Below, piece after piece: positions 1,777-64,000 of a DNA stretch of 64,000 nucleotides (the first letter of the stretch is position 1; the number at the start of each line of letters is the position of its first letter). The notes below the pieces were generated by a model, which saw only the letters and a program-made list of their open reading frames with translations, had not been told where the DNA came from and did no database searches. Made by a program: the position numbers and the translations under genes. The stretch is from Thuidium tamariscinum (lineage: Eukaryota; Streptophyta; Bryopsida; Hypnales; Thuidiaceae): assembly GCA_947034885.2 (NCBI GenBank), contig OX344751.2:47298260-47362259 (forward strand). Reading direction: 5' to 3'.

Positions 1777-1861
1777 TAGCCGAGATTAGACTTTTGAGGA
1801 GGAAGTAAAAAGTGATTGTTCTTTACTAGTTCTTGAAGTTGTAGCTTATTATTCCTTTGAA

Positions 1862-9825: not shown

Positions 9826-9855
9826 TCGGCTCTCATGGAATCTATAGGTATAAAA

Positions 9856-37144: not shown

Positions 37145-37341
37145 GTGAGCTTGGTGAGGGCATCGAGTCATGCGGAGGAAATCTCGTTGGTCGGAGCGCA
37201 TCAGTCGCAAGTGAGCTTGGCGCGGGCATCGAGCCGTTCGGAGGAAGTCTCGGTGCTTGGTGTGCATCAGTCGCGAGTGAGCTTGGCGAGGGCATCCAAT
37301 TTGTGCGGACAGCGGAGGAAGTCTCGGGTGCTTAGTCGCGA
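37145..37341 (+). repeat. 66-bp tandem repeat, three units
   Basis: GTGAGCTTGG(T/C)G(A/C)GGGCATC starts at 37145, 37211 and 37277, each followed by a GGAGGAA(A/G)TCTCG block. Since 66 is a multiple of 3, an open frame crosses the repeat, but I see no recognisable protein. It is GC-rich and marks the start of a compositionally distinct 8-kb stretch. Confidence 0.8.
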
Positions 37342-46407: not shown

Positions 46408-47631
46408 ATGGGGAATAAAGAAAGGAATCCTGATGGTTCCAAAAAAAAGAAAAAGCCAAGAGAAGATGGTGCACGGGATTCTACAGGAATGTTTAGTGTG
46501 TTAGATCTACATATTATCAACAATTTACATTATTGTGTTTATTGTGATTGCCTAGTGCCTGTGCACCATGAGCATATTTTAACACATTTGAGTTCTAGTA
46601 AACACCAGAACAACATTACTGTGTATAATCTTTTGCCAGGATTGGCTAGGTACGGTGTCGATTGGCTAGAGGATGAAAGGAAACTTTATTGCGAGGAGTG
46701 TTGCAAAGTATTTCCAGGGAGGGTTATAGACGTTGTTCATCACATTGAGAAACATGGGGCTTTACAACAAGCTATCACTTTTGGGGGGGAAGGTGATTTT
46801 CACCAAGAGAATTTGTCAAAACGTTTTATTAGGACCAAAGTTTGGCTTGTAGACTTTATGACTACAAATGAAGGGTTGAATATACAGCTACAAGGTTTGC
46901 CAAAGGTTGTTGGTCCTTTAACTTTCCGGGAAGATTCTCCAGCCAATACTTTTTTGGCTAGCCTTAGGAATGACGTTTTTTCAAAGAATGAACTTTCTTT
47001 CCTTGCTAGAGTTGCTTCTTTTTTAGAAGCAAAGGGGAATAGAGTTACACGTGCGGAAGACAAGCAGAGTTCTAATATGAAAGCATTCGGTATGCGATAT
47101 GCAAGAGGAGATCTTGGTTGGTAAGTCCCTATTTTTTTATTTTTTTACATTATTTTTTTATTTATTTTTATTTTTTTAAGGTTCTAATATCATTGTATGT
47201 TACAAATATAGGTACAAACATCAATTTACCGATATTTACAAACTCTCCGAAGAGTTTGTAACGTTTGTTGCAGAGCGTTTGCAACAACAATATCCTGTGG
47301 TCTATCAACATCTAGAGAAGATTATTGAAGTTGAGGGGTTGCCAATTGGTACTTCTACCATTGGCAACTCACCTTTTACTTCATTTGCTTTAACCAAGGA
47401 TTATAATTGCCGCCCACATCAAGACAAAGATGATTACAATCTTGGTTTTATTTTGTGGTTAAATGAAGGTAAGTTTCTATATTTTTATATTTTTATATTT
47501 GAAAATTTTCATATTTGGTATTATGTTTTTACATGTTTCTATAAGTTTACTGATTATAACTTTGTGTTATTTTAGATGCTGAAGATTTGGAGAACGAGGA
47601 TGTACTTTTTGCAATACCTGAGTTAATCTAG
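46408..47631 (+). CDS. Zinc-finger plus TET/JBP-like 2OG-Fe(II) oxygenase, C-terminally cut
   Basis: Three exons are predicted: 46408-47120, 47212-47468 and 47576-47631, with GTAAGT donors and TATAG/TTTAG acceptors, giving 341 codons. The ATG at 46408 follows a TTTTTCAG acceptor, so an upstream leader exon is likely. Residues ~8-22 are Lys-rich and may be a nuclear signal. Two C2H2-type fingers follow: YCVYCDCLVPVHHEHILTHL and YCEECCKVFPGRVIDVVHHI. The C-terminal part has FTSFALTKDYNCRPHQDKDD then LGFILWL, which fits the iron-binding HxD turn and following strand of TET/JBP-type dioxygenases; these oxidise 5-methylcytosine or thymine. The last residues LFAIPELI resemble the next strand, but the frame stops there, so the distal His and the 2OG-binding Arg are missing. 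The stop lies inside a 36-bp repeat copied from upstream. Probably inactive as an enzyme. Confidence 0.55.
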
Positions 47632-47657: not shown

Positions 47658-48433
47658 TATCTATTTTTTAACATTTGCAAGCCATTTTACAAACACATTG
47701 AGTTAATTGAATGATATATATATGTATATTTTTGAACAAATGGGTGGGCCCACTGCATTAAGAAACAAAACCAAGAACAAGAAGCCAAGCCACCAGGGCT
47801 GGCCAAAGAAATACAATATCAAAACCCCTAGGAGCCAACATACTTATTATAAGATTGTACAATTAAGATGTACACATTAAAAGCTATAATTTTTTTAAAT
47901 CCAAATGATCATAGGCCTTTAAAGGTTAAGGCTTAAGACAATACTACATAAAATCAAAGGTAAAAGCCTTAGCAACAAACTAAAAGAATGTTTTTCTTTT
48001 CTATCTACCTTGTAAATCAAATCAAAATGGATAAACTAAAAAATATCAATAAGCTGGGTTACTCAACTCATTCCAGCAACATAGTTGGACAACATTAAGG
48101 CAAGCCAACAAACAAAGACTACAAAGAAAGAACAACACTAATACAAAACTTTAAACACATAAGAATAAAGAAGGTCAATGGGCTAAACAAAGACAATTAA
48201 ACAAAAACAAAAAACACCCAAGCTAAAATAAAAAAAGTCTTAGGTAAAAGGAACAGAGGTTAAGGATTGTTTATAATTCCACAATCCTATAACTAACTTA
48301 CTTGTTAAATATAATGAAATATATCCATCCTTAGCAATAAAATCACCATAAGTATTAGCATCACTAACAAAAGTAAACAAAAATACTATCTAAATCTCTT
48401 AAATTGAACTCAGGTATTGCAAAAATTGAACTC
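47658..48433. other. AT-rich spacer before the tandem array
   Basis: No gene seen. A patch near 47740-47830 is slightly more GC-rich (ATGGGTGGGCCCACTGCATT, CACCAGGGCTGGCCAA) and may be the edge of an unidentified transposon. Confidence 0.35.
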
Positions 48434-48497
48434 AGGGTTTAGGGTTACAAGGGCATCCCCGAAGGGTTTAGGGTTTAGGGTTTAGGGTTTTAGGGTT
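48434..48497 (+). repeat. Telomere-repeat tract 0 (array left edge)
   Basis: Two short runs of TTTAGGG (48434-48447 and 48463-48497) are separated by ACAAGGGCATCCCCGAA. One TTTTAGGG variant is present. The break suggests a rearranged edge of the array. Confidence 0.9.
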
Positions 48498-48550
48498 ACA
48501 AGGGCATCCCCGAATTTTTGACATGTTTTTTTTGAGCTAGGATTTTGGCT

Positions 48551-48990
48551 ACCCCCCCATTTAGGGGTAGGGCCTATCCAATGGTGCAAAAAACCACCAT
48601 TACACTATCACGGATTGGGAGATATAGCAACTTGGACTTTTAGAGGGTGAGTTGACTTTCTTTAGGGTAATGTATTTTGAAGTTTTGAGAAGACCTACCC
48701 CCCTATTTGTGGGTATTGTGAATCCAATGGTGGTGTTGGTTTCCCCAAAAGAGTTTAGGGTTGAAAGTTATAAGAGTTTCAAAAGTAGCAAATAGGGTTG
48801 GTATCTTTTTAGGGTTTAGGTATTTTTAGGGTTTCAAGGTACCTACCCCCCCATTTTCAAGGGTTGTGAACACAATGGAGTAAAGAAAATCCATTAGAGT
48901 GGGCTTAGTTTGGGAGATATGGCCTATTTGACCTCAAAGTTGACTTTTTGAAGATGGATGATTTCGAAAGTTTGACCTAAAGCAATGTTG
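48551..48990 (+). repeat. Degenerate ~147-bp repeat, three copies, inside the array unit
   Basis: ACCCCCCCATTT, ACCCCCCTATTT and ACCCCCCCATTT start at 48551, 48697 and 48845. Each is followed by a GGG-rich word, then a (G)AA(T/C)(C/A)CAATGG-like word. The line GGGAGATAT(A/G)GC...TTGAC recurs near 48615 and 48910. The same pattern recurs in all later units. No frame is open. Confidence 0.6.
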
Positions 48991-49325
48991 TAAGTTTAGG
49001 AGTGGGTGTTTAGAATTTGTATCCCACTTGGTGATTGGACCTTGTATGCATGAGTTATGGATGGATGAAGGTAGGTTGTTATTTGGAAACTTCATCCGTC
49101 CATAAGTTCTTCATACAATGTCCAATTGAAGAGTTTTTTATCATTTTAGAGAGCCCTTGAGTATATTTAGAATAAGGTATTTAGAGTATAAATTATGAAT
49201 GTTTTTTTAGGTGTGGCAAATTAAGAGGACTTGTTGGAAACTAGAAAAGTATAGAAAAATGTATATATATAATAGAAAAAAATATCCGAATATGTAATCA
49301 AAAAAATATAGAGAGTGGTATGTAT

Positions 49326-49344
49326 CGATCTATGCAATAGATCG
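49326..49344. repeat. Hairpin across the stop codon of the 217-codon frame
   Basis: CGATCTAT-GCA-ATAGATCG forms an 8-bp stem with a 3-nt loop; the minus-strand stop TAG falls in it. The same sequence is present in every unit. It could influence termination or mRNA 3' structure, or be fortuitous. Confidence 0.6.
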
Positions 49345-49983
49345 AATGTGTACTCTCCACTCTGCCCCATACAAGCCTAGATAGTGACGAGCTGCGCCTA
49401 CACGATCAGTGTAGATGCCCCTCTTCGGGAGGTAATGACCACCCGTGGTACTCCTTAGCAGGAGCCCTGAAACAGTACGATCTCGAACTCTACCCTGAAG
49501 GGCCCAATCCGCATGATGGAGGAAATCATGGATCAGAGGTCGGAGCTCAGGACTATCCAATTCTACGCCCTCGTATGAAAACCCTAAGTCCATAGTAACC
49601 TCAAGTCTAGATGCATCTGCAGCAGCTGCCGCTACAGCCCAATCACGTGCCTGCTGTAGCTGACGTCTCATGTATCTGCCACTCCACCCAAAAGCCTGAC
49701 GAGCAAACGTCAAAGTACTCTGAATCTCCAACGATGGATCACGCTCGTTCCTGCCATGGACCATCTCTGCCAGTGCTGCCATAAAGCCCTGACAACCCTG
49801 CAAAATGAACTCAGCAGTAGCCACCTTCGTGTCGAAGGATCCACCTAGCGCTCTCTCGAGGCCTGCAATGCTGAACAAGTCGTGCTCGCTGCAGAGTCGC
49901 CGTCCGTCGATCACCATCTCTGTCTGCACTGTGAGCTTGATCCGAATGCCTGACAGATGACTAAGGCGCACCTCATCCGTCAT
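49330..49983 (-). CDS. Array unit 1, downstream frame (217 aa), unknown protein
   Basis: It begins with ATG, two codons after the UGA that ends the upstream frame and in the same phase, so it can also be the C-terminal extension of a 697-codon product. Residues ~95-140 are predicted helical and Ala/Arg/Gln-rich (YMRRQLQQARDWAVAAAAAD). Later parts include VELDSPELRPLIHDFLHHAD and a C-terminal block with GGHYLPKRGIYTDRVGAARH. There is no signal peptide, membrane segment, zinc motif or polymerase motif. I recognise no family. GC content (~50%) is well above the AT-rich surroundings and the frame is uninterrupted in all five copies. Residue 16 is Lys here (IRIKL) but Gln in units 3-5. Confidence 0.75.
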   Translation of the reverse strand: MTDEVRLSHLSGIRIKLTVQTEMVIDGRRLCSEHDLFSIAGLERALGGSFDTKVATAEFILQGCQGFMAALAEMVHGRNERDPSLEIQSTLTFARQAFGWSGRYMRRQLQQARDWAVAAAAADASRLEVTMDLGFSYEGVELDSPELRPLIHDFLHHADWALQGRVRDRTVSGLLLRSTTGGHYLPKRGIYTDRVGAARHYLGLYGAEWRVHIRSIA

Positions 49984-49992
49984 ATCTGCTCA
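49951..49992 (-). promoter_or_regulatory. Candidate UGA readthrough site with 3' stem-loop (unit 1)
   Basis: On the minus strand the stop TGA (49990-49992) is followed by 7 nt, then TGACGGATGA (49982-49973), a 12-nt loop, and TCATCTGTCA (49960-49951). The arms pair over 10 bp with one G-U. Stem-loops beginning about 8 nt after a leaky stop are the known stimulators in several plant and animal RNA viruses and some cellular genes. The frame stays open for 219 codons after the UGA. The stop context is CGT-TGA-GCA, which is not one of the strongest known. Identical in units 2-5 at 53268-53309, 56600-56641, 59932-59973 and 63264-63305. Confidence 0.6.
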
Positions 49993-51423
49993 ACGCTGTA
50001 ACAGATCTTGTAACTGTCGCACTCGAGTGCGGATGGTGAACGTCGTGGTAGGTATGTCATCAAGGAACCGACGGGGTATCGTGGCTAAGATATCGTGACA
50101 GAGCTCCTGATAGACCTTGACCTTCGCTAAACGAAGGTCATGGAGTGGTCTGCACTCTACTGATCCAAAGCCCTGCTGGACGCACATCTCGTGTACTAAG
50201 CCCTCTCTGAATCTAGACGCACGATACTGCTCATCGCTGAATCTAAAGAACAGTAGTCCATCTGTAGGAATCCGAACCCCGTAATCGAAGACGTTCCGCC
50301 CGATCGGAACGTATGAGCCCATCTGCTCACGATATCGCTGTATGAAGCGATCTATCATGGGCTCAACGGTCGGAATAGACCACTTCATGCCAAAGAAGGA
50401 AACTCGGCACAATCTGGCTCCCAAAGAGTGGAGAGCCTCGGACATGGCCGAGACGGGGACATTGACTTGGCTCCTAGCCAGTGTCAAACTGTCAGGAGCA
50501 CAAGTCAATGTCATGGCAAAGTGAACACGGAGGATATCCACCAAAGAGGCCTTAAAGGCCTCTCTATCCTCGTCAAGGTTCCCTGCATAAACCTTGACCA
50601 CTATCGGATCGGAAATGACATGGAGCCAATCCACAAACTCTGGAAGATCCCTAACAGGAATCTTCCGACTCGCTGGACGAGCCATGATGCCAAACAACGC
50701 TGGCAAATCCAATGTCAACATCGTGAAGCAAGCTGCGTCTAAATCTAGACTATGTGGGTCGTTCACCCCTAGATCCTCCGTGGACGGTCCAGAAAGTGGA
50801 GGGAAACGAGTGCATCCTGTAGATCTATCCCTAGCTAGCGCTATACGAGGATATAAACGACGTACAGTAGAGCCTGGCAGACTCTGAGGAGCTGGTGCCT
50901 GAGCTCGACGAGGTCGTACAGCTCGAGCAGGTGGCACATCCTCGTCATCACTACTATCACCGATAATCAACATCCTAGCCCTTCGAACTACTCGGCGATG
51001 CACTGGAGCAGCTAACGGTGACAAAATAGGGGCAGAAAGGATTGGTGACTGGACTGGAGAAACAGGTGACTGGACTAGAGAAACTAGTGGCTGGACTGGA
51101 GAAACCGGTAACTGGACTACAGAAACTAGTACATCCGAAACCATAGAAGGCACTAGCTGGATGACAAGACCAGAACGTCGACTACGTACAACATCCATAA
51201 CAGTACGTGGTATAACTGGACCACGTACTGGTAACTGGACTGGAGAAACAGGAACATCCTCCTCTACAGAAGGCACTGGCTGGATGACAAGACCGGAACG
51301 TCGACTGCGTACAACATCCATAACAGTACGTGGTATAACTGGACCACGTACGGATGACTCCAATCCACTAATAAACGCCTCATCATCCGAACTACTAAGG
51401 TCGATGATATCTGTCATCTCCAT
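49990..51423 (-). CDS. Array unit 1, upstream frame (477 aa), unknown protein
   Basis: It begins with ATG at 51423 in a favourable context (G at -3, G at +4). Residues 5-15 (DIIDLSSSDDE) and 152-162 (LIIGDSSDDED) look like SUMO-interaction motifs: a hydrophobic core followed by Ser/Asp. Residues 26-52 and 67-93 are a duplicated module, RGPVIPRTVMDVVRSRRSGL and then VIQ(P/L)VPS. Residues ~104-128 are SPVQxPV-type proline repeats. A basic patch (HRRVVRRAR) precedes the second SIM-like motif. Residues ~225-477 look globular and are probably the core domain (KIPVRDLPEFVDWLHVI; VSFFGMKWSIPTVEPMIDRF). The frame ends with a single TGA and stays open beyond it. No family recognised; no reverse transcriptase, helicase or transposase motif is seen. 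It is intact in four full copies. Confidence 0.8.
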   Translation of the reverse strand: MEMTDIIDLSSSDDEAFISGLESSVRGPVIPRTVMDVVRSRRSGLVIQPVPSVEEDVPVSPVQLPVRGPVIPRTVMDVVRSRRSGLVIQLVPSMVSDVLVSVVQLPVSPVQPLVSLVQSPVSPVQSPILSAPILSPLAAPVHRRVVRRARMLIIGDSSDDEDVPPARAVRPRRAQAPAPQSLPGSTVRRLYPRIALARDRSTGCTRFPPLSGPSTEDLGVNDPHSLDLDAACFTMLTLDLPALFGIMARPASRKIPVRDLPEFVDWLHVISDPIVVKVYAGNLDEDREAFKASLVDILRVHFAMTLTCAPDSLTLARSQVNVPVSAMSEALHSLGARLCRVSFFGMKWSIPTVEPMIDRFIQRYREQMGSYVPIGRNVFDYGVRIPTDGLLFFRFSDEQYRASRFREGLVHEMCVQQGFGSVECRPLHDLRLAKVKVYQELCHDILATIPRRFLDDIPTTTFTIRTRVRQLQDLLQR

Positions 51424-51467
51424 AGCGCCTAAATACTATATACGATCGAAATCTCCTCGAAAAATCA
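51424..51467 (-). other. Leader exon segment before the 477-codon frame (unit 1)
   Basis: The minus strand runs from a TTTTTCAG acceptor (ending at 51468) to the ATG. It contains GTATATAGTA about 20 nt before the ATG, too close to serve as an ordinary TATA box for this frame. Confidence 0.4.
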
Positions 51468-51758
51468 CTGAAAAAGCACTCCCTAAACCCCTAAATCGGA
51501 AGAAAAATGACCAAAAATCCACCCAACACCCCACAACACCCTAAAATCAGCAAGGCAAAATGAAATAATTCTAAACCCAAAAACGCATCCCCAAACTCCT
51601 AAACCTTGGAAATGTAAACCTTAATCAAGAACCCTAAATATAGACCCATAAAATTCTTAAATTGGCCATCATATGCCTTCCAAAACAATTAACCCAAACA
51701 CCCAAAATACCCAACAATGAAAAGCAAATACCCCCCAAAAATAACTAACACCCCTTAC
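51468..51758 (-). other. Predicted 5' leader intron (unit 1), 291 nt
   Basis: On the minus strand a good donor GAG|GTAAGG at 51758 lies directly next to the telomeric tract. A good plant acceptor GCTTTTTCAG ends at 51468. The stretch between is T- and G-rich on the minus strand, as expected of a plant intron, and has no open frame. The equivalents in later units are 54785-55075, 58117-58407 and 61449-61739. Confidence 0.45.
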
Positions 51759-51763
51759 CTCAA

Positions 51764-51814
51764 GTTTAGGGTTTAGGGTTTAGGGTTTAGGGTTAGGGTT
51801 TAGGGTTTAGGGTT
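51764..51814 (+). repeat. Interstitial telomere-repeat tract 1 (51 bp)
   Basis: TTTAGGG repeats with one TTAGGG variant. It lies immediately upstream of the unit 1 minus-strand gene, where the complementary AAACCCTAA words would act as telo-boxes. It is 15 bp (two repeats) shorter than tracts 2-4. Confidence 0.95.
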
Positions 51815-52646
51815 ACAAGGGCATCCCCGAATTTTTGACATGTTTTTTTTGAGCTAGGATTTTGGCTACCCCCCCATTTAGGGGTAGGGCCTATCCAATG
51901 GTGCAAAAAACCACCATTACACTATCACGGATTGGGAGATATAGCAACTTGGACTTTTAGAGGGTGAGTTGACTTTCTTTAGGGTAATGTATTTTGAAGT
52001 TTTGAGAAGACCTACCCCCCTATTTGTGGGTATTGTGAATCCAATGGTGGTGTTGGTTTCCCCAAAAGAGTTTAGGGTTGAAAGTTATAAGAGTTTCAAA
52101 AGTAGCAAATAGGGTTGGTATCTTTTTAGGGTTTAGGTATTTTTAGGGTTTCAAGGTACCTACCCCCCCATTTTCAAGGGTTGTGAACACAATGGAGTAA
52201 AGAAAATCCATTAGAGTGGGCTTAGTTTGGGAGATATGGCCTATTTGACCTCAAAGTTGACTTTTTGAAGATGGATGATTTCGAAAGTTTGACCTAAAGC
52301 AATGTTGTAAGTTTAGGAGTGGGTGTTTAGAATTTGTATCCCACTTGGTGATTGGACCTTGTATGCATGAGTTATGGATGGATGAAGGTAGGTTGTTATT
52401 TGGAAACTTCATCCGTCCATAAGTTCTTCATACAATGTCCAATTGAAGAGTTTTTTATCATTTTAGAGAGCCCTTGAGTATATTTAGAATAAGGTATTTA
52501 GAGTATAAATTATGAATGTTTTTTTAGGTGTGGCAAATTAAGAGGACTTGTTGGAAACTAGAAAAGTATAGAAAAATGTATATATATAATAGAAAAAAAT
52601 ATCCGAATATGTAATCAAAAAAATATAGAGAGTGGTATGTATCGAT

Positions 52647-53300
52647 CTATGCAATAGATCGAATGTGTACTCTCCACTCTGCCCCATACAAGCCTAGATA
52701 GTGACGAGCTGCGCCTACACGATCAGTGTAGATGCCCCTCTTCGGGAGGTAATGACCACCCGTGGTACTCCTTAGCAGGAGCCCTGAAACAGTACGATCT
52801 CGAACTCTACCCTGAAGGGCCCAATCCGCATGATGGAGGAAATCATGGATCAGAGGTCGGAGCTCAGGACTATCCAATTCTACGCCCTCGTATGAAAACC
52901 CTAAGTCCATAGTAACCTCAAGTCTAGATGCATCTGCAGCAGCTGCCGCTACAGCCCAATCACGTGCCTGCTGTAGCTGACGTCTCATGTATCTGCCACT
53001 CCACCCAAAAGCCTGACGAGCAAACGTCAAAGTACTCTGAATCTCCAACGATGGATCACGCTCGTTCCTGCCATGGACCATCTCTGCCAGTGCTGCCATA
53101 AAGCCCTGACAACCCTGCAAAATGAACTCAGCAGTAGCCACCTTCGTGTCGAAGGATCCACCTAGCGCTCTCTCGAGGCCTGCAATGCTGAACAAGTCGT
53201 GCTCGCTGCAGAGTCGCCGTCCGTCGATCACCATCTCTGTCTGCACTGTGAGCTTGATCCGAATGCCTGACAGATGACTAAGGCGCACCTCATCCGTCAT
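52647..53300 (-). CDS. Array unit 2, downstream frame (217 aa)
   Basis: Same protein as 49330-49983, including Lys at residue 16. It lies in phase after the UGA at 53307-53309. Confidence 0.75.
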   Translation of the reverse strand: MTDEVRLSHLSGIRIKLTVQTEMVIDGRRLCSEHDLFSIAGLERALGGSFDTKVATAEFILQGCQGFMAALAEMVHGRNERDPSLEIQSTLTFARQAFGWSGRYMRRQLQQARDWAVAAAAADASRLEVTMDLGFSYEGVELDSPELRPLIHDFLHHADWALQGRVRDRTVSGLLLRSTTGGHYLPKRGIYTDRVGAARHYLGLYGAEWRVHIRSIA

Positions 53301-53306
53301 ATCTGC

Positions 53307-54740
53307 TCAACGCTGTAACAGATCTTGTAACTGTCGCACTCGAGTGCGGATGGTGAACGTCGTGGTAGGTATGTCATCAAGGAACCGACGGGGTATCGTG
53401 GCTAAGATATCGTGACAGAGCTCCTGATAGACCTTGACCTTCGCTAAACGAAGGTCATGGAGTGGTCTGCACTCTACTGATCCAAAGCCCTGCTGGACGC
53501 ACATCTCGTGTACTAAGCCCTCTCTGAATCTAGACGCACGATACTGCTCATCGCTGAATCTAAAGAACAGTAGTCCATCTGTAGGAATCCGAACCCCGTA
53601 ATCGAAGACGTTCCGCCCGATCGGAACGTATGAGCCCATCTGCTCACGATATCGCTGTATGAAGCGATCTATCATGGGCTCAACGGTCGGAATAGACCAC
53701 TTCATGCCAAAGAAGGAAACTCGGCACAATCTGGCTCCCAAAGAGTGGAGAGCCTCGGACATGGCCGAGACGGGGACATTGACTTGGCTCCTAGCCAGTG
53801 TCAAACTGTCAGGAGCACAAGTCAATGTCATGGCAAAGTGAACACGGAGGATATCCACCAAAGAGGCCTTAAAGGCCTCTCTATCCTCGTCAAGGTTCCC
53901 TGCATAAACCTTGACCACTATCGGATCGGAAATGACATGGAGCCAATCCACAAACTCTGGAAGATCCCTAACAGGAATCTTCCGACTCGCTGGACGAGCC
54001 ATGATGCCAAACAACGCTGGCAAATCCAATGTCAACATCGTGAAGCAAGCTGCGTCTAAATCTAGACTATGTGGGTCGTTCACCCCTAGATCCTCCGTGG
54101 ACGGTCCAGAAAGTGGAGGGAAACGAGTGCATCCTGTAGATCTATCCCTAGCTAGCGCTATACGAGGATATAAACGACGTACAGTAGAGCCTGGCAGACT
54201 CTGAGGAGCTGGTGCCTGAGCTCGACGAGGTCGTACAGCTCGAGCAGGTGGCACATCCTCGTCATCACTACTATCACCGATAATCAACATCCTAGCCCTT
54301 CGAACTACTCGGCGATGCACTGGAGCAGCTAACGGTGACAAAATAGGGGCAGAAAGGATTGGTGACTGGACTGGAGAAACAGGTGACTGGACTAGAGAAA
54401 CTAGTGGCTGGACTGGAGAAACCGGTAACTGGACTACAGAAACTAGTACATCCGAAACCATAGAAGGCACTAGCTGGATGACAAGACCAGAACGTCGACT
54501 ACGTACAACATCCATAACAGTACGTGGTATAACTGGACCACGTACTGGTAACTGGACTGGAGAAACAGGAACATCCTCCTCTACAGAAGGCACTGGCTGG
54601 ATGACAAGACCGGAACGTCGACTGCGTACAACATCCATAACAGTACGTGGTATAACTGGACCACGTACGGATGACTCCAATCCACTAATAAACGCCTCAT
54701 CATCCGAACTACTAAGGTCGATGATATCTGTCATCTCCAT
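53307..54740 (-). CDS. Array unit 2, upstream frame (477 aa)
   Basis: Translates identically to 49990-51423, with the same duplicated module, SIM-like motifs and terminal UGA. Confidence 0.8.
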   Translation of the reverse strand: MEMTDIIDLSSSDDEAFISGLESSVRGPVIPRTVMDVVRSRRSGLVIQPVPSVEEDVPVSPVQLPVRGPVIPRTVMDVVRSRRSGLVIQLVPSMVSDVLVSVVQLPVSPVQPLVSLVQSPVSPVQSPILSAPILSPLAAPVHRRVVRRARMLIIGDSSDDEDVPPARAVRPRRAQAPAPQSLPGSTVRRLYPRIALARDRSTGCTRFPPLSGPSTEDLGVNDPHSLDLDAACFTMLTLDLPALFGIMARPASRKIPVRDLPEFVDWLHVISDPIVVKVYAGNLDEDREAFKASLVDILRVHFAMTLTCAPDSLTLARSQVNVPVSAMSEALHSLGARLCRVSFFGMKWSIPTVEPMIDRFIQRYREQMGSYVPIGRNVFDYGVRIPTDGLLFFRFSDEQYRASRFREGLVHEMCVQQGFGSVECRPLHDLRLAKVKVYQELCHDILATIPRRFLDDIPTTTFTIRTRVRQLQDLLQR

Positions 54741-55080
54741 AGCGCCTAAATACTATATACGATCGAAATCTCCTCGAAAAATCACTGAAAAAGCACTCCC
54801 TAAACCCCTAAATCGGAAGAAAAATGACCAAAAATCCACCCAACACCCCACAACACCCTAAAATCAGCAAGGCAAAATGAAATAATTCTAAACCCAAAAA
54901 CGCATCCCCAAACTCCTAAACCTTGGAAATGTAAACCTTAATCAAGAACCCTAAATATAGACCCATAAAATTCTTAAATTGGCCATCATATGCCTTCCAA
55001 AACAATTAACCCAAACACCCAAAATACCCAACAATGAAAAGCAAATACCCCCCAAAAATAACTAACACCCCTTACCTCAA

Positions 55081-55146
55081 GTTTAGGGTTTAGGGTTTAG
55101 GGTTTAGGGTTAGGGTTTAGGGTTTAGGGTTTAGGGTTTTAGGGTT
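55081..55146 (+). repeat. Interstitial telomere-repeat tract 2 (66 bp)
   Basis: TTTAGGG repeats with one TTAGGG and one TTTTAGGG variant at the same positions as in tracts 3 and 4, so the tract was copied as part of the unit and not added anew by telomerase. Confidence 0.95.
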
Positions 55147-55978
55147 ACAAGGGCATCCCCGAATTTTTGACATGTTTTTTTTGAGCTAGGATTTTGGCTA
55201 CCCCCCCATTTAGGGGTAGGGCCTATCCAATGGTGCAAAAAACCACCATTACACTATCACGGATTGGGAGATATAGCAACTTGGACTTTTAGAGGGTGAG
55301 TTGACTTTCTTTAGGGTAATGTATTTTGAAGTTTTGAGAAGACCTACCCCCCTATTTGTGGGTATTGTGAATCCAATGGTGGTGTTGGTTTCCCCAAAAG
55401 AGTTTAGGGTTGAAAGTTATAAGAGTTTCAAAAGTAGCAAATAGGGTTGGTATCTTTTTAGGGTTTAGGTATTTTTAGGGTTTCAAGGTACCTACCCCCC
55501 CATTTTCAAGGGTTGTGAACACAATGGAGTAAAGAAAATCCATTAGAGTGGGCTTAGTTTGGGAGATATGGCCTATTTGACCTCAAAGTTGACTTTTTGA
55601 AGATGGATGATTTCGAAAGTTTGACCTAAAGCAATGTTGTAAGTTTAGGAGTGGGTGTTTAGAATTTGTATCCCACTTGGTGATTGGACCTTGTATGCAT
55701 GAGTTATGGATGGATGAAGGTAGGTTGTTATTTGGAAACTTCATCCGTCCATAAGTTCTTCATACAATGTCCAATTGAAGAGTTTTTTATCATTTTAGAG
55801 AGCCCTTGAGTATATTTAGAATAAGGTATTTAGAGTATAAATTATGAATGTTTTTTTAGGTGTGGCAAATTAAGAGGACTTGTTGGAAACTAGAAAAGTA
55901 TAGAAAAATGTATATATATAATAGAAAAAAATATCCGAATATGTAATCAAAAAAATATAGAGAGTGGTATGTATCGAT

Positions 55979-56632
55979 CTATGCAATAGATCGAATGTGT
56001 ACTCTCCACTCTGCCCCATACAAGCCTAGATAGTGACGAGCTGCGCCTACACGATCAGTGTAGATGCCCCTCTTCGGGAGGTAATGACCACCCGTGGTAC
56101 TCCTTAGCAGGAGCCCTGAAACAGTACGATCTCGAACTCTACCCTGAAGGGCCCAATCCGCATGATGGAGGAAATCATGGATCAGAGGTCGGAGCTCAGG
56201 ACTATCCAATTCTACGCCCTCGTATGAAAACCCTAAGTCCATAGTAACCTCAAGTCTAGATGCATCTGCAGCAGCTGCCGCTACAGCCCAATCACGTGCC
56301 TGCTGTAGCTGACGTCTCATGTATCTGCCACTCCACCCAAAAGCCTGACGAGCAAACGTCAAAGTACTCTGAATCTCCAACGATGGATCACGCTCGTTCC
56401 TGCCATGGACCATCTCTGCCAGTGCTGCCATAAAGCCCTGACAACCCTGCAAAATGAACTCAGCAGTAGCCACCTTCGTGTCGAAGGATCCACCTAGCGC
56501 TCTCTCGAGGCCTGCAATGCTGAACAAGTCGTGCTCGCTGCAGAGTCGCCGTCCGTCGATCACCATCTCTGTCTGCACTGTGAGCTGGATCCGAATGCCT
56601 GACAGATGACTAAGGCGCACCTCATCCGTCAT
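55979..56632 (-). CDS. Array unit 3, downstream frame (217 aa)
   Basis: Same protein with Gln at residue 16 (codon CAG, G at plus-strand 56587). This variant is shared by units 4 and 5. Confidence 0.75.
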   Translation of the reverse strand: MTDEVRLSHLSGIRIQLTVQTEMVIDGRRLCSEHDLFSIAGLERALGGSFDTKVATAEFILQGCQGFMAALAEMVHGRNERDPSLEIQSTLTFARQAFGWSGRYMRRQLQQARDWAVAAAAADASRLEVTMDLGFSYEGVELDSPELRPLIHDFLHHADWALQGRVRDRTVSGLLLRSTTGGHYLPKRGIYTDRVGAARHYLGLYGAEWRVHIRSIA

Positions 56633-56638
56633 ATCTGC

Positions 56639-58072
56639 TCAACGCTGTAACAGATCTTGTAACTGTCGCACTCGAGTGCGGATGGTGAACGTCGTGGTAG
56701 GTATGTCATCAAGGAACCGACGGGGTATCGTGGCTAAGATATCGTGACAGAGCTCCTGATAGACCTTGACCTTCGCTAAACGAAGGTCATGGAGTGGTCT
56801 GCACTCTACTGATCCAAAGCCCTGCTGGACGCACATCTCGTGTACTAAGCCCTCTCTGAATCTAGACGCACGATACTGCTCATCGCTGAATCTAAAGAAC
56901 AGTAGTCCATCTGTAGGAATCCGAACCCCGTAATCGAAGACGTTCCGCCCGATCGGAACGTATGAGCCCATCTGCTCACGATATCGCTGTATGAAGCGAT
57001 CTATCATGGGCTCAACGGTCGGAATAGACCACTTCATGCCAAAGAAGGAAACTCGGCACAATCTGGCTCCCAAAGAGTGGAGAGCCTCGGACATGGCCGA
57101 GACGGGGACATTGACTTGGCTCCTAGCCAGTGTCAAACTGTCAGGAGCACAAGTCAATGTCATGGCAAAGTGAACACGGAGGATATCCACCAAAGAGGCC
57201 TTAAAGGCCTCTCTATCCTCGTCAAGGTTCCCTGCATAAACCTTGACCACTATCGGATCGGAAATGACATGGAGCCAATCCACAAACTCTGGAAGATCCC
57301 TAACAGGAATCTTCCGACTCGCTGGACGAGCCATGATGCCAAACAACGCTGGCAAATCCAATGTCAACATCGTGAAGCAAGCTGCGTCTAAATCTAGACT
57401 ATGTGGGTCGTTCACCCCTAGATCCTCCGTGGACGGTCCAGAAAGTGGAGGGAAACGAGTGCATCCTGTAGATCTATCCCTAGCTAGCGCTATACGAGGA
57501 TATAAACGACGTACAGTAGAGCCTGGCAGACTCTGAGGAGCTGGTGCCTGAGCTCGACGAGGTCGTACAGCTCGAGCAGGTGGCACATCCTCGTCATCAC
57601 TACTATCACCGATAATCAACATCCTAGCCCTTCGAACTACTCGGCGATGCACTGGAGCAGCTAACGGTGACAAAATAGGGGCAGAAAGGATTGGTGACTG
57701 GACTGGAGAAACAGGTGACTGGACTAGAGAAACTAGTGGCTGGACTGGAGAAACCGGTAACTGGACTACAGAAACTAGTACATCCGAAACCATAGAAGGC
57801 ACTAGCTGGATGACAAGACCAGAACGTCGACTACGTACAACATCCATAACAGTACGTGGTATAACTGGACCACGTACTGGTAACTGGACTGGAGAAACAG
57901 GAACATCCTCCTCTACAGAAGGCACTGGCTGGATGACAAGACCGGAACGTCGACTGCGTACAACATCCATAACAGTACGTGGTATAACTGGACCACGTAC
58001 GGATGACTCCAATCCACTAATAAACGCCTCATCATCCGAACTACTAAGGTCGATGATATCTGTCATCTCCAT
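56639..58072 (-). CDS. Array unit 3, upstream frame (477 aa)
   Basis: Identical translation to units 1 and 2; ends with UGA at 56639-56641. Confidence 0.8.
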   Translation of the reverse strand: MEMTDIIDLSSSDDEAFISGLESSVRGPVIPRTVMDVVRSRRSGLVIQPVPSVEEDVPVSPVQLPVRGPVIPRTVMDVVRSRRSGLVIQLVPSMVSDVLVSVVQLPVSPVQPLVSLVQSPVSPVQSPILSAPILSPLAAPVHRRVVRRARMLIIGDSSDDEDVPPARAVRPRRAQAPAPQSLPGSTVRRLYPRIALARDRSTGCTRFPPLSGPSTEDLGVNDPHSLDLDAACFTMLTLDLPALFGIMARPASRKIPVRDLPEFVDWLHVISDPIVVKVYAGNLDEDREAFKASLVDILRVHFAMTLTCAPDSLTLARSQVNVPVSAMSEALHSLGARLCRVSFFGMKWSIPTVEPMIDRFIQRYREQMGSYVPIGRNVFDYGVRIPTDGLLFFRFSDEQYRASRFREGLVHEMCVQQGFGSVECRPLHDLRLAKVKVYQELCHDILATIPRRFLDDIPTTTFTIRTRVRQLQDLLQR

Positions 58073-58412
58073 AGCGCCTAAATACTATATACGATCGAAA
58101 TCTCCTCGAAAAATCACTGAAAAAGCACTCCCTAAACCCCTAAATCGGAAGAAAAATGACCAAAAATCCACCCAACACCCCACAACACCCTAAAATCAGC
58201 AAGGCAAAATGAAATAATTCTAAACCCAAAAACGCATCCCCAAACTCCTAAACCTTGGAAATGTAAACCTTAATCAAGAACCCTAAATATAGACCCATAA
58301 AATTCTTAAATTGGCCATCATATGCCTTCCAAAACAATTAACCCAAACACCCAAAATACCCAACAATGAAAAGCAAATACCCCCCAAAAATAACTAACAC
58401 CCCTTACCTCAA

Positions 58413-58478
58413 GTTTAGGGTTTAGGGTTTAGGGTTTAGGGTTAGGGTTTAGGGTTTAGGGTTTAGGGTTTTAGGGTT
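58413..58478 (+). repeat. Interstitial telomere-repeat tract 3 (66 bp)
   Basis: Same length and variant pattern as tract 2. Confidence 0.95.
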
Positions 58479-59310
58479 ACAAGGGCATCCCCGAATTTTT
58501 GACATGTTTTTTTTGAGCTAGGATTTTGGCTACCCCCCCATTTAGGGGTAGGGCCTATCCAATGGTGCAAAAAACCACCATTACACTATCACGGATTGGG
58601 AGATATAGCAACTTGGACTTTTAGAGGGTGAGTTGACTTTCTTTAGGGTAATGTATTTTGAAGTTTTGAGAAGACCTACCCCCCTATTTGTGGGTATTGT
58701 GAATCCAATGGTGGTGTTGGTTTCCCCAAAAGAGTTTAGGGTTGAAAGTTATAAGAGTTTCAAAAGTAGCAAATAGGGTTGGTATCTTTTTAGGGTTTAG
58801 GTATTTTTAGGGTTTCAAGGTACCTACCCCCCCATTTTCAAGGGTTGTGAACACAATGGAGTAAAGAAAATCCATTAGAGTGGGCTTAGTTTGGGAGATA
58901 TGGCCTATTTGACCTCAAAGTTGACTTTTTGAAGATGGATGATTTCGAAAGTTTGACCTAAAGCAATGTTGTAAGTTTAGGAGTGGGTGTTTAGAATTTG
59001 TATCCCACTTGGTGATTGGACCTTGTATGCATGAGTTATGGATGGATGAAGGTAGGTTGTTATTTGGAAACTTCATCCGTCCATAAGTTCTTCATACAAT
59101 GTCCAATTGAAGAGTTTTTTATCATTTTAGAGAGCCCTTGAGTATATTTAGAATAAGGTATTTAGAGTATAAATTATGAATGTTTTTTTAGGTGTGGCAA
59201 ATTAAGAGGACTTGTTGGAAACTAGAAAAGTATAGAAAAATGTATATATATAATAGAAAAAAATATCCGAATATGTAATCAAAAAAATATAGAGAGTGGT
59301 ATGTATCGAT

Positions 59311-59964
59311 CTATGCAATAGATCGAATGTGTACTCTCCACTCTGCCCCATACAAGCCTAGATAGTGACGAGCTGCGCCTACACGATCAGTGTAGATGCC
59401 CCTCTTCGGGAGGTAATGACCACCCGTGGTACTCCTTAGCAGGAGCCCTGAAACAGTACGATCTCGAACTCTACCCTGAAGGGCCCAATCCGCATGATGG
59501 AGGAAATCATGGATCAGAGGTCGGAGCTCAGGACTATCCAATTCTACGCCCTCGTATGAAAACCCTAAGTCCATAGTAACCTCAAGTCTAGATGCATCTG
59601 CAGCAGCTGCCGCTACAGCCCAATCACGTGCCTGCTGTAGCTGACGTCTCATGTATCTGCCACTCCACCCAAAAGCCTGACGAGCAAACGTCAAAGTACT
59701 CTGAATCTCCAACGATGGATCACGCTCGTTCCTGCCATGGACCATCTCTGCCAGTGCTGCCATAAAGCCCTGACAACCCTGCAAAATGAACTCAGCAGTA
59801 GCCACCTTCGTGTCGAAGGATCCACCTAGCGCTCTCTCGAGGCCTGCAATGCTGAACAAGTCGTGCTCGCTGCAGAGTCGCCGTCCGTCGATCACCATCT
59901 CTGTCTGCACTGTGAGCTGGATCCGAATGCCTGACAGATGACTAAGGCGCACCTCATCCGTCAT
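59311..59964 (-). CDS. Array unit 4, downstream frame (217 aa)
   Basis: Same protein, Gln variant at residue 16. Confidence 0.75.
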   Translation of the reverse strand: MTDEVRLSHLSGIRIQLTVQTEMVIDGRRLCSEHDLFSIAGLERALGGSFDTKVATAEFILQGCQGFMAALAEMVHGRNERDPSLEIQSTLTFARQAFGWSGRYMRRQLQQARDWAVAAAAADASRLEVTMDLGFSYEGVELDSPELRPLIHDFLHHADWALQGRVRDRTVSGLLLRSTTGGHYLPKRGIYTDRVGAARHYLGLYGAEWRVHIRSIA

Positions 59965-59970
59965 ATCTGC

Positions 59971-61404
59971 TCAACGCTGTAACAGATCTTGTAACTGTCG
60001 CACTCGAGTGCGGATGGTGAACGTCGTGGTAGGTATGTCATCAAGGAACCGACGGGGTATCGTGGCTAAGATATCGTGACAGAGCTCCTGATAGACCTTG
60101 ACCTTCGCTAAACGAAGGTCATGGAGTGGTCTGCACTCTACTGATCCAAAGCCCTGCTGGACGCACATCTCGTGTACTAAGCCCTCTCTGAATCTAGACG
60201 CACGATACTGCTCATCGCTGAATCTAAAGAACAGTAGTCCATCTGTAGGAATCCGAACCCCGTAATCGAAGACGTTCCGCCCGATCGGAACGTATGAGCC
60301 CATCTGCTCACGATATCGCTGTATGAAGCGATCTATCATGGGCTCAACGGTCGGAATAGACCACTTCATGCCAAAGAAGGAAACTCGGCACAATCTGGCT
60401 CCCAAAGAGTGGAGAGCCTCGGACATGGCCGAGACGGGGACATTGACTTGGCTCCTAGCCAGTGTCAAACTGTCAGGAGCACAAGTCAATGTCATGGCAA
60501 AGTGAACACGGAGGATATCCACCAAAGAGGCCTTAAAGGCCTCTCTATCCTCGTCAAGGTTCCCTGCATAAACCTTGACCACTATCGGATCGGAAATGAC
60601 ATGGAGCCAATCCACAAACTCTGGAAGATCCCTAACAGGAATCTTCCGACTCGCTGGACGAGCCATGATGCCAAACAACGCTGGCAAATCCAATGTCAAC
60701 ATCGTGAAGCAAGCTGCGTCTAAATCTAGACTATGTGGGTCGTTCACCCCTAGATCCTCCGTGGACGGTCCAGAAAGTGGAGGGAAACGAGTGCATCCTG
60801 TAGATCTATCCCTAGCTAGCGCTATACGAGGATATAAACGACGTACAGTAGAGCCTGGCAGACTCTGAGGAGCTGGTGCCTGAGCTCGACGAGGTCGTAC
60901 AGCTCGAGCAGGTGGCACATCCTCGTCATCACTACTATCACCGATAATCAACATCCTAGCCCTTCGAACTACTCGGCGATGCACTGGAGCAGCTAACGGT
61001 GACAAAATAGGGGCAGAAAGGATTGGTGACTGGACTGGAGAAACAGGTGACTGGACTAGAGAAACTAGTGGCTGGACTGGAGAAACCGGTAACTGGACTA
61101 CAGAAACTAGTACATCCGAAACCATAGAAGGCACTAGCTGGATGACAAGACCAGAACGTCGACTACGTACAACATCCATAACAGTACGTGGTATAACTGG
61201 ACCACGTACTGGTAACTGGACTGGAGAAACAGGAACATCCTCCTCTACAGAAGGCACTGGCTGGATGACAAGACCGGAACGTCGACTGCGTACAACATCC
61301 ATAACAGTACGTGGTATAACTGGACCACGTACGGATGACTCCAATCCACTAATAAACGCCTCATCATCCGAACTACTAAGGTCGATGATATCTGTCATCT
61401 CCAT
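59971..61404 (-). CDS. Array unit 4, upstream frame (477 aa)
   Basis: Identical translation to the other full copies; ends with UGA at 59971-59973. Confidence 0.8.
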   Translation of the reverse strand: MEMTDIIDLSSSDDEAFISGLESSVRGPVIPRTVMDVVRSRRSGLVIQPVPSVEEDVPVSPVQLPVRGPVIPRTVMDVVRSRRSGLVIQLVPSMVSDVLVSVVQLPVSPVQPLVSLVQSPVSPVQSPILSAPILSPLAAPVHRRVVRRARMLIIGDSSDDEDVPPARAVRPRRAQAPAPQSLPGSTVRRLYPRIALARDRSTGCTRFPPLSGPSTEDLGVNDPHSLDLDAACFTMLTLDLPALFGIMARPASRKIPVRDLPEFVDWLHVISDPIVVKVYAGNLDEDREAFKASLVDILRVHFAMTLTCAPDSLTLARSQVNVPVSAMSEALHSLGARLCRVSFFGMKWSIPTVEPMIDRFIQRYREQMGSYVPIGRNVFDYGVRIPTDGLLFFRFSDEQYRASRFREGLVHEMCVQQGFGSVECRPLHDLRLAKVKVYQELCHDILATIPRRFLDDIPTTTFTIRTRVRQLQDLLQR

Positions 61405-61744
61405 AGCGCCTAAATACTATATACGATCGAAATCTCCTCGAAAAATCACTGAAAAAGCACTCCCTAAACCCCTAAATCGGAAGAAAAATGACCAAAAATC
61501 CACCCAACACCCCACAACACCCTAAAATCAGCAAGGCAAAATGAAATAATTCTAAACCCAAAAACGCATCCCCAAACTCCTAAACCTTGGAAATGTAAAC
61601 CTTAATCAAGAACCCTAAATATAGACCCATAAAATTCTTAAATTGGCCATCATATGCCTTCCAAAACAATTAACCCAAACACCCAAAATACCCAACAATG
61701 AAAAGCAAATACCCCCCAAAAATAACTAACACCCCTTACCTCAA

Positions 61745-61810
61745 GTTTAGGGTTTAGGGTTTAGGGTTTAGGGTTAGGGTTTAGGGTTTAGGGTTTAGGG
61801 TTTTAGGGTT
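61745..61810 (+). repeat. Interstitial telomere-repeat tract 4 (66 bp)
   Basis: Same length and variant pattern as tracts 2 and 3. Confidence 0.95.
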
Positions 61811-62642
61811 ACAAGGGCATCCCCGAATTTTTGACATGTTTTTTTTGAGCTAGGATTTTGGCTACCCCCCCATTTAGGGGTAGGGCCTATCCAATGGTGC
61901 AAAAAACCACCATTACACTATCACGGATTGGGAGATATAGCAACTTGGACTTTTAGAGGGTGAGTTGACTTTCTTTAGGGTAATGTATTTTGAAGTTTTG
62001 AGAAGACCTACCCCCCTATTTGTGGGTATTGTGAATCCAATGGTGGTGTTGGTTTCCCCAAAAGAGTTTAGGGTTGAAAGTTATAAGAGTTTCAAAAGTA
62101 GCAAATAGGGTTGGTATCTTTTTAGGGTTTAGGTATTTTTAGGGTTTCAAGGTACCTACCCCCCCATTTTCAAGGGTTGTGAACACAATGGAGTAAAGAA
62201 AATCCATTAGAGTGGGCTTAGTTTGGGAGATATGGCCTATTTGACCTCAAAGTTGACTTTTTGAAGATGGATGATTTCGAAAGTTTGACCTAAAGCAATG
62301 TTGTAAGTTTAGGAGTGGGTGTTTAGAATTTGTATCCCACTTGGTGATTGGACCTTGTATGCATGAGTTATGGATGGATGAAGGTAGGTTGTTATTTGGA
62401 AACTTCATCCGTCCATAAGTTCTTCATACAATGTCCAATTGAAGAGTTTTTTATCATTTTAGAGAGCCCTTGAGTATATTTAGAATAAGGTATTTAGAGT
62501 ATAAATTATGAATGTTTTTTTAGGTGTGGCAAATTAAGAGGACTTGTTGGAAACTAGAAAAGTATAGAAAAATGTATATATATAATAGAAAAAAATATCC
62601 GAATATGTAATCAAAAAAATATAGAGAGTGGTATGTATCGAT

Positions 62643-63296
62643 CTATGCAATAGATCGAATGTGTACTCTCCACTCTGCCCCATACAAGCCTAGATAGTGA
62701 CGAGCTGCGCCTACACGATCAGTGTAGATGCCCCTCTTCGGGAGGTAATGACCACCCGTGGTACTCCTTAGCAGGAGCCCTGAAACAGTACGATCTCGAA
62801 CTCTACCCTGAAGGGCCCAATCCGCATGATGGAGGAAATCATGGATCAGAGGTCGGAGCTCAGGACTATCCAATTCTACGCCCTCGTATGAAAACCCTAA
62901 GTCCATAGTAACCTCAAGTCTAGATGCATCTGCAGCAGCTGCCGCTACAGCCCAATCACGTGCCTGCTGTAGCTGACGTCTCATGTATCTGCCACTCCAC
63001 CCAAAAGCCTGACGAGCAAACGTCAAAGTACTCTGAATCTCCAACGATGGATCACGCTCGTTCCTGCCATGGACCATCTCTGCCAGTGCTGCCATAAAGC
63101 CCTGACAACCCTGCAAAATGAACTCAGCAGTAGCCACCTTCGTGTCGAAGGATCCACCTAGCGCTCTCTCGAGGCCTGCAATGCTGAACAAGTCGTGCTC
63201 GCTGCAGAGTCGCCGTCCGTCGATCACCATCTCTGTCTGCACTGTGAGCTGGATCCGAATGCCTGACAGATGACTAAGGCGCACCTCATCCGTCAT
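62643..63296 (-). CDS. Array unit 5, downstream frame (217 aa)
   Basis: Same protein, Gln variant at residue 16. Confidence 0.75.
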   Translation of the reverse strand: MTDEVRLSHLSGIRIQLTVQTEMVIDGRRLCSEHDLFSIAGLERALGGSFDTKVATAEFILQGCQGFMAALAEMVHGRNERDPSLEIQSTLTFARQAFGWSGRYMRRQLQQARDWAVAAAAADASRLEVTMDLGFSYEGVELDSPELRPLIHDFLHHADWALQGRVRDRTVSGLLLRSTTGGHYLPKRGIYTDRVGAARHYLGLYGAEWRVHIRSIA

Positions 63297-63302
63297 ATCT
63301 GC

Positions 63303-64000
63303 TCAACGCTGTAACAGATCTTGTAACTGTCGCACTCGAGTGCGGATGGTGAACGTCGTGGTAGGTATGTCATCAAGGAACCGACGGGGTATCGTGGCTA
63401 AGATATCGTGACAGAGCTCCTGATAGACCTTGACCTTCGCTAAACGAAGGTCATGGAGTGGTCTGCACTCTACTGATCCAAAGCCCTGCTGGACGCACAT
63501 CTCGTGTACTAAGCCCTCTCTGAATCTAGACGCACGATACTGCTCATCGCTGAATCTAAAGAACAGTAGTCCATCTGTAGGAATCCGAACCCCGTAATCG
63601 AAGACGTTCCGCCCGATCGGAACGTATGAGCCCATCTGCTCACGATATCGCTGTATGAAGCGATCTATCATGGGCTCAACGGTCGGAATAGACCACTTCA
63701 TGCCAAAGAAGGAAACTCGGCACAATCTGGCTCCCAAAGAGTGGAGAGCCTCGGACATGGCCGAGACGGGGACATTGACTTGGCTCCTAGCCAGTGTCAA
63801 ACTGTCAGGAGCACAAGTCAATGTCATGGCAAAGTGAACACGGAGGATATCCACCAAAGAGGCCTTAAAGGCCTCTCTATCCTCGTCAAGGTTCCCTGCA
63901 TAAACCTTGACCACTATCGGATCGGAAATGACATGGAGCCAATCCACAAACTCTGGAAGATCCCTAACAGGAATCTTCCGACTCGCTGGACGAGCCATGA
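63303..64000 (-). CDS. Array unit 5, upstream frame, partial
   Basis: The C-terminal ~231 residues of the 477-codon frame. The 5' part lies beyond the window, so the array continues to the right. Confidence 0.8.
   Translation of the reverse strand, partial: MARPASRKIPVRDLPEFVDWLHVISDPIVVKVYAGNLDEDREAFKASLVDILRVHFAMTLTCAPDSLTLARSQVNVPVSAMSEALHSLGARLCRVSFFGMKWSIPTVEPMIDRFIQRYREQMGSYVPIGRNVFDYGVRIPTDGLLFFRFSDEQYRASRFREGLVHEMCVQQGFGSVECRPLHDLRLAKVKVYQELCHDILATIPRRFLDDIPTTTFTIRTRVRQLQDLLQR

What the first reader, a model, noticed from the sequence alone, without database searches (positions are those of the whole stretch)
48434..64000. Tandem coding element with telomere repeats in every unit: a plant analogue of yeast Y' elements?
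At least 4.6 copies of a 3.32-3.33-kb unit run head to tail. Each has an intact gene pair of unknown family and a TTTAGGG tract. The G-rich strand points to the right in every unit, as it would toward a right-hand chromosome end. Yeast Y' elements show the same design: a subtelomeric coding unit, tandem, separated by short telomere tracts. I know of no described plant protein-coding satellite of this form. A subtelomeric position is inference.
Basis: partly seen in the sequence, partly recalled or inferred. Interest (0 to 1): 0.88.

Follow-up and report, generated by a model that had tools for sequence, protein, structure and literature searches.

The report
Moss telomere-end coding mobile element
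At most chromosome ends of this plant genome, probably a moss, lies a 3.3-kb protein-coding element that always faces inward and meets the telomere repeats at one fixed point, which looks like a telomere-dwelling mobile element without reverse transcriptase.

Summary
The array is real: four full units of 3,317-3,332 bp and part of a fifth, nearly identical, each with a TTTAGGG tract. I found unit copies at 15 of 22 large-contig ends, always with the coding strand reading inward. One end of the unit is fixed at a telomere junction; the other is complete or cut, at 23 start points, usually next to CCCTAAA repeats. HeT-A-, MoTeR- and Terminon-type telomeric elements share this geometry.

The "intact gene pair" is wrong: it is one 698-codon frame with an in-frame stop; open copies lie at two other ends. 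The protein belongs to a family whose organism-named hits are all mosses; no reverse transcriptase, helicase or other Pfam domain was found. Its confident predicted fold weakly resembles Rep_trans rolling-circle initiators, with conserved residues on the expected strands, but profile comparison is negative. Telomere-specific element: near certain. How it spreads (Rep-like joining, reverse transcription in trans, or recombination alone) is open.

The parts
48407..48442 (+). Inner edge of the array: repaired break. 48407-48425 is a 19-bp inverted copy of 47606-47624, then CAGGG runs into TTTAGGG
   Evidence: longest inverted match 19 bp; longest match in 200 shuffles 16 bp
48443..48463 (+). 21-bp fragment of the fixed unit end (GGTTACAAGGGCATCCCCGAA) between telomere repeats
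48463..48497 (+). Telomere tract before unit 1
48494..51810 (-). Unit 1 (3317 bp, with the tract at its outer side)
51811..55142 (-). Unit 2 (3332 bp)
55143..58474 (-). Unit 3 (3332 bp)
58475..61806 (-). Unit 4 (3332 bp)
61807..64000 (-). Unit 5, cut by the end of contig C3
49330..51423 (-).
49936..49938 (-). Codon of the conserved RxE position (Glu in 44 of 46 relatives): AAG in units 1-2, CAG in units 3-5; 49938 is the only base that varies between units
51424..51763 (-). Leader of unit 1 (5' untranslated side; 340 bp). The same leader in unit 2 has four CCCTAAA heptamers on + and no TTTAGGG
   Evidence: counted in unit 2, 54741-55080
51764..51814 (+). Telomere tract between units 1 and 2
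51866..52306 (+). Three degenerate repeats of about 147 bp in the tail of unit 2, beginning CTACCCCCC
   Evidence: 0, 0 and 1 of 300 shuffles reach the pair scores
51811..52646 (-). Tail (3' untranslated side; 836 bp) of unit 2, ending at the fixed junction ...GGGGATGCCCTTGTAA / CCCTAAA on the sense strand
55081..55146 (+). Telomere tract between units 2 and 3 (66 bp; the same sequence between units 3/4 and 4/5)
58413..58478 (+). Telomere tract between units 3 and 4
61745..61810 (+). Telomere tract between units 4 and 5

Best explanation
The array is the outermost assembled part of a chromosome and consists of a telomere-resident mobile element. Shown: the unit was found at 15 of 22 large-contig ends; its coding strand reads from the telomere inward in every copy aligned there; its inner end (sense ...GGGGATGCCCTTGTAA, followed by CCCTAAA) is constant; its outer end is complete or truncated and mostly joined to telomere repeats; open-frame copies coexist with interrupted ones. 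Inferred: new copies arise when an element strand is joined to the 3' end of the telomeric G strand (...TTTAGGG | TTACAAGGG...), which fixes the inner end; the outer end erodes and telomerase re-caps it, giving truncated copies; exchange between telomere tracts (break-induced or rolling-circle copying) makes the near-identical arrays and spreads them between ends. Most likely, but unproven, the element's only protein does the joining: its predicted core resembles the TBP-like fold of Rep_trans rolling-circle initiators and has conserved Asp, Asp, Tyr and Glu on the strands where Rep_trans has its metal ligands and nucleophile. The window copies lack the Glu and carry a stop, so they would be passengers. 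My odds: telomere-specific element 0.95; protein-driven spread of any kind 0.6; Rep_trans-like chemistry 0.35. The confidence given is for the whole statement.
Against: Profile comparison with seven Rep_trans proteins gives nothing, and no aligned member matches PF02486. Foldseek finds nothing significant in PDB. VIA-align Z stays below 8, and in the second model an unrelated helical match scores 6.6 against 6.5 for 4cij. The Lys of the Rep_trans RxYxK motif is absent. All steps of joining are inferred. One founding junction copied by recombination would also give a constant inner end. The age gradient expected from outward addition is seen at C2 left, C4 left, C4 right and C10 right, but is absent or reversed at C3 left, C5 right, C7 right, C11 right and in the internal array.
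Confidence: 0.4

Rival explanations
1. Passive subtelomeric element of the Y' type: one founding unit at a chromosome end was copied to other ends only by recombination through telomere tracts, with erosion and telomerase re-capping. The protein plays no part in spreading.
For: Window units 3-5 are preceded by identical 66-bp tracts with the same variant repeats, which in the fungal MoTeR arrays was read as D-loop or rolling-circle copying rather than repeated transposition (PMC7367193, passages). The C2-left and C3-right arrays share the stop and the spacing series 3317, 3332, 3332, 3332 from the inner side. The inner junction has nearly one register (65 of 67), as if inherited from one founder.
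Against: A protein about half-identical between distant mosses, with long open frames in relatives and two open copies here, suggests selection for a working protein. Diverged subfamilies lie inside chromosomes too.
Confidence: 0.3
2. Non-autonomous telomeric retroelement (HeT-A-like): the RNA, ending in CCCTAAA, anneals to the telomeric G overhang and a reverse transcriptase supplied in trans (telomerase or a Penelope-like element) copies it onto the end. The protein is a Gag-like or accessory factor.
For: Polarity, fixed 3' end, 5' truncation and C-rich repeats after the 3' end match what is described for Terminons and MoTeRs (PMC12477314 and PMC7367193, passages). HeT-A as a Gag-only precedent is recalled.
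Against: No reverse transcriptase was found in the unit's ORFs. No Gag-like feature was found, though no dedicated Gag search was made. Whether a reverse-transcriptase element sits at other ends was not learnt: the genome search did not complete.
Confidence: 0.22
3. Telomere-integrated circular replicon or virus: a Rep-only circle carrying TTTAGGG repeats integrates into telomeres by homology, as recalled for herpesviruses with telomeric repeats.
For: One replication-type protein at most, tandem units, telomere repeats in each unit; weak matches to an Inoviridae protein in the viral structure library (E 0.02).
Against: No relatives in viral contigs, phages, plasmids or genome contigs at the sensitivity used; no capsid-type gene noticed in the unit; the fixed end and truncation series need a further explanation.
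Confidence: 0.06
4. Assembly artefact: copies multiplied or misplaced at contig ends.
For: Near-identical units lie at contig ends; raw reads were not available.
Against: Truncation points, divergence and tract lengths differ among 15 ends, 10 of them capped by 0.75-1.34 kb of telomere repeats.
Confidence: 0.02

Closest known systems
Magnaporthe oryzae telomeric retrotransposons (MoTeR1, MoTeR2)
   Same: In telomeres, head-to-tail tandems separated by short telomere tracts, truncated copies re-capped, arrays with identical tracts ascribed to D-loop or rolling-circle copying (PMC7367193, passages)
   Different: MoTeR1 encodes a reverse transcriptase; here none was found and the protein family is unrelated to any Pfam family at cut-off
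HeT-A/TART/TAHRE and Terminon/Athena elements
   Same: Coding strand reads inward, 3' end on the inner side, C-rich repeats after the 3' end for Terminons (PMC12477314, passages; HeT-A details recalled)
   Different: No reverse transcriptase found; normal TTTAGGG telomeres are kept
Yeast Y' elements
   Same: Subtelomeric coding unit, tandem, short telomere tracts between units (Y' facts recalled)
   Different: No helicase found; smaller unit; fixed inner end with many truncated copies
Rep_trans (PF02486) rolling-circle initiators and archaeal Rep-Arvir
   Same: TBP-like core suggested by fold comparison, conserved Asp, Asp, Tyr, Glu on matching strands
   Different: No sequence or profile similarity; Lys of RxYxK absent; longer helical segment between the Tyr and Glu strands; activity untested
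Replitrons
   Same: Elements of 0.9-4 kb reported in mosses and encoding a replication-type endonuclease (PMC10741241, passages; founding paper not held)
   Different: Replitrons encode HUH endonuclease; no conserved HUH motif here
Telomere-associated Penelope-like elements of Selaginella and subtelomeric Retand of Silene
   Same: The plant examples of telomere-associated or subtelomeric transposable elements named in a 2025 review (PMC12477314, passages)
   Different: Both are retroelements by that review; the present unit shows no reverse transcriptase

Membership tests
Telomere-specific mobile element (HeT-A/MoTeR/Terminon type) | Recent copies sit at chromosome ends | tested here: met
   15 of 22 large-contig ends; all 78 listed tail hits lie at contig ends; the 96-100% identical protein hits do too, except one place 435 kb inside C3
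Telomere-specific mobile element (HeT-A/MoTeR/Terminon type) | One polarity, fixed inner end at telomere repeats, variable outer end | tested here: met
   63 of 63 segments in one polarity; 55 end at the fixed end, 8 within 5 nt of the end of the fetched stretch; 23 start points
Telomeric retrotransposon | Own reverse transcriptase | tested here: not met
   No RT family in the unit's ORFs or in 23 aligned relatives at E up to 1
Telomeric retrotransposon | RNA intermediate or partner RT element | not tested
   Genome search for PF00078 did not complete; no RNA data
Yeast Y' element | Subtelomeric tandem units separated by short telomere tracts | tested here: met
Yeast Y' element | Helicase-coding gene | tested here: not met
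   No helicase family
Yeast Y' element | Replication origin (ARS) in the unit | not testable with these tools
   Needs an experiment
Rep_trans-like endonuclease | TBP-like Rep_trans fold | tested here: inconclusive
Rep_trans-like endonuclease | Catalytic Tyr and three acidic metal ligands | tested here: inconclusive
   Conserved candidates on matching strands, but no residue-level superposition was available
Rep_trans-like endonuclease | Sequence or profile similarity to PF02486 | tested here: not met
   hhalign probability below 1%; no PF02486 match among 23 members
Replitron/Helitron (HUH) | Conserved HUH motif | tested here: not met
   The only His conserved at 95% or more is H443; no conserved H-x-H
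Plant coding satellite only | Tandem array without element-like ends | tested here: not met
   Single and truncated copies with one fixed end at many chromosome ends

The most novel reading that the evidence does not exclude
A eukaryotic rolling-circle-type endonuclease of the TBP-fold (Rep_trans-like) class drives a DNA element that uses the exposed 3' overhang of chromosomes as its acceptor: the enzyme, covalently on the 5' end TTACAAGGG..., hands that end to ...TTTAGGG-3'-OH and telomerase caps the far end. This would be a telomere-addition transposon without reverse transcriptase and the first Rep_trans-like enzyme in eukaryotes.
Probability: 0.3. Interest if true: 0.95.

Novelty: new variant of a known kind. 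Interest (0 to 1): 0.85.

Why it matters
A 2025 review calls telomere-associated transposable elements rare in plants and says no telomeric retrotransposons like HeT-A have been found there (PMC12477314, passages). Here a coding element in which no reverse transcriptase was found occupies most chromosome ends of a plant, probably a moss, that keeps TTTAGGG telomeres; relatives exist in Sphagnum and Ceratodon. It would let one ask, in haploid and easily grown plants, whether selfish elements extend, protect or destabilise chromosome ends. It may also bear on the discrete TTTAGGG band of about 2.1 kb, sensitive to BAL31, reported in Sphagnum fallax (PMC10856949, sections 7 and 11); the window array predicts bands of 0.82-0.86 kb with the same enzyme in its own species. 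If the protein proves Rep_trans-like, an enzyme class described as bacterial and, lately, archaeal (PMC13107129, passages) extends to plants.

Tried and rejected
Two adjacent genes: rejected, one frame. Known family: no Pfam, NCBIfam or PHROG match at a cut-off for the proteins scanned; no PDB sequence match. Viral or prokaryotic relatives: none found. RNA gene: none. Strongly folding unit end: not better than shuffles (z -0.99 and -0.41). Rep_trans by profile: negative. Viral structure library: weak only, best E 0.004, to an uncharacterized protein. PDB match for the OTU-like relative P0052: none. Literature: no title or abstract start in the listings describes such an element in a moss; the library lacks most subscription papers.

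Species: not identified. Genome-wide telomere pattern: 1165 forward and 1117 reverse matches to (TTTAGGG)4, but only the first places were listed, all on C1.
Full report
The observation. Units begin at 48494, 51811, 55143, 58475 and 61807, with spacings 3317, 3332, 3332 and 3332 bp and a cut last unit. BLAST of the array against the window gives 99.69-99.96% identity between shifted copies. Aligned units differ at one base, 49938, and in the telomere tract. Tracts of 35-66 bp by tandem-repeat scan lie before each unit with TTTAGGG on the plus strand.

One gene, not two. The 477- and 217-aa ORFs on the minus strand share a frame and are two codons apart; relatives run through the position, 40 of 43 with Trp. 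All five window units have the stop. Of the columns conserved at 95% or more, two differ in unit 1: a Ser is Ala, and a Glu (44 of 46 relatives) is Lys in units 1-2 and Gln in units 3-5. This Glu codon holds the only base that varies in the array. The coincidence (3 positions of 3332) was noticed after the fact and is unexplained; two relatives, P0058 and P0014, also have Lys and Gln there.

Where it is. The window's genome has 363 Mb in 19 contigs, 11 of them 17.5-54 Mb; the window is the last 64,000 bp of C3. The 217-aa protein gave 88 matches and P0022, a relative, 90 (lower bounds). The near-identical matches lie at contig ends, on plus at left ends and on minus at right ends, except one 98% match 435 kb inside C3. 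I fetched 10 kb of 11 left ends, 2-5.5 kb of nine right ends and 1.5 kb of C6 right; C3 right is the window. Copies lie at left ends C1, C2, C3, C4, C6, C7 and C9 and right ends C3, C4, C5, C6, C7, C8, C10 and C11: 15 of 22. Not found: C5 left, C8 left and C1 right (telomere present); C10 left and C11 left (first 2500 bases read N); C2 right and C9 right (no telomere in the 2 kb fetched). At ten ends a telomere of about 0.75-1.34 kb is followed by a truncated copy: C3, C4, C6, C9 left; C4, C5, C6, C7, C10, C11 right. At C2 left, C3 right and C8 right the contig ends in or beside a unit; at C1 and C7 left the end is masked.

Geometry. Without its tract the sense unit is 3270 bp: leader 1-340, frame 341-2434, tail 2435-3270. 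In 20 end stretches, 63 aligned segments of at least 80 nt were kept (shorter ones and an internal 133-nt repeat were dropped). None is antisense; 55 end at 3266-3270 and the other eight end within 5 nt of the end of the fetched stretch. There are 23 start points from 1 to 3178; of these, one is cut by a contig end, one follows masked bases, and one (2209) is joined to the previous copy by a 5-nt telomeric stub; the others follow telomere-like repeats, and some starts are blurred because the unit itself holds telomere-like bases there. Of 67 inner-end motifs, 65 read TTGTAACCCTA. A DNA search with the 836-bp tail listed 78 hits, all beginning at its first base, with 40 of 112 candidates scored; they lie at ends of C2, C3, C4, C5, C6 and C9.

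Age. At C2 left the array tails are 100% identical to the query and the four innermost copies 97, 98, 75 and 81%, as outward addition predicts; C4 left, C4 right and C10 right agree weakly. C3 left, C5 right, C7 right and C11 right do not. An internal array 435 kb inside C3 has three truncated copies (76, 84 and 98% from the side facing the chromosome end inward), each ending at the fixed end, with CCCTAAA after the innermost; it looks like a former chromosome end, but the innermost copy is the least diverged.

The inner edge of the window array is a repaired break: a 19-bp inverted copy of DNA about 800 bp away, then CAGGG running into TTTAGGG.

Dead and open copies. Eight C2-left and five C3-right copies carry the TGA, some C2 copies with further frame breaks. 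Copies at C5 right (full length) and C7 right (from unit base 20) have an open frame and keep Trp and Glu. The C2-left and C3-right arrays share the spacing series 3317, 3332, 3332, 3332 from the inner side, which suggests copying between ends. Window copies differ from the open ones by 7-8 amino-acid-changing codons, the stop included, and 2 silent ones, so there is no sign of constraint on that branch.

How it works. A fixed inner end beside CCCTAAA, an inward-reading sense strand and truncated, re-capped outer ends are what telomere-added elements show (MoTeR: PMC7367193, passages; Terminons: PMC12477314, passages). Three routes fit: Rep-like joining of the strand beginning TTACAAGGG to the telomeric 3' end; reverse transcription in trans; or recombination alone from one founder. 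The conserved protein, the absence of a detected reverse transcriptase and the fold lead make me favour the first for new copies, with recombination for the near-identical arrays. The enzyme step is inferred, not shown.

Comparison. It works like a telomeric transposable element and is laid out like Y', but by coding content it is not shown to be a member of either. That the plant is a moss is inferred from the telomere repeat and the named relatives.

Noticed in passing
window 8824-11139 (-): A second GC-rich stretch with two ORFs (419 and 332 aa) in one frame, 19 codons apart, interrupted by TAG; weak sub-threshold Pfam hit (CPV_RdRP, E 0.0007, 18.8 of 27 bits) in the first ORF.
   Followed up: partly
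G000:C3:46925501-46929500 (L046): Internal array of three truncated copies of the unit, each ending at the fixed end, 435 kb from the chromosome end: a likely fossil chromosome end.
   Followed up: partly
G000:C7:10223942-10225412 and other internal places: Diverged internal members of the protein family (27-63% identity), most with stops, some with open frames of 400 or more codons.
   Followed up: no
P0052: A family member with an N-terminal OTU-protease-like stretch below the Pfam cut-off.
   Followed up: partly
window 36761-36887 and 37144-37296: Tandem repeats of 31 bp (4.1 copies) and 66 bp (2.3 copies).
   Followed up: no
window 49938 and the same codon in other copies: The only base that varies in the window array falls in the codon of the predicted metal-binding Glu (Lys or Gln, not Glu, in the window); two relatives also have Lys or Gln there.
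   Followed up: partly
C6 left end, about 1-37.5 kb: About 30 head-to-tail copies of one truncated form of the element (start 2172, spacing mostly about 1.2 kb): a satellite built from a truncated element.
   Followed up: partly
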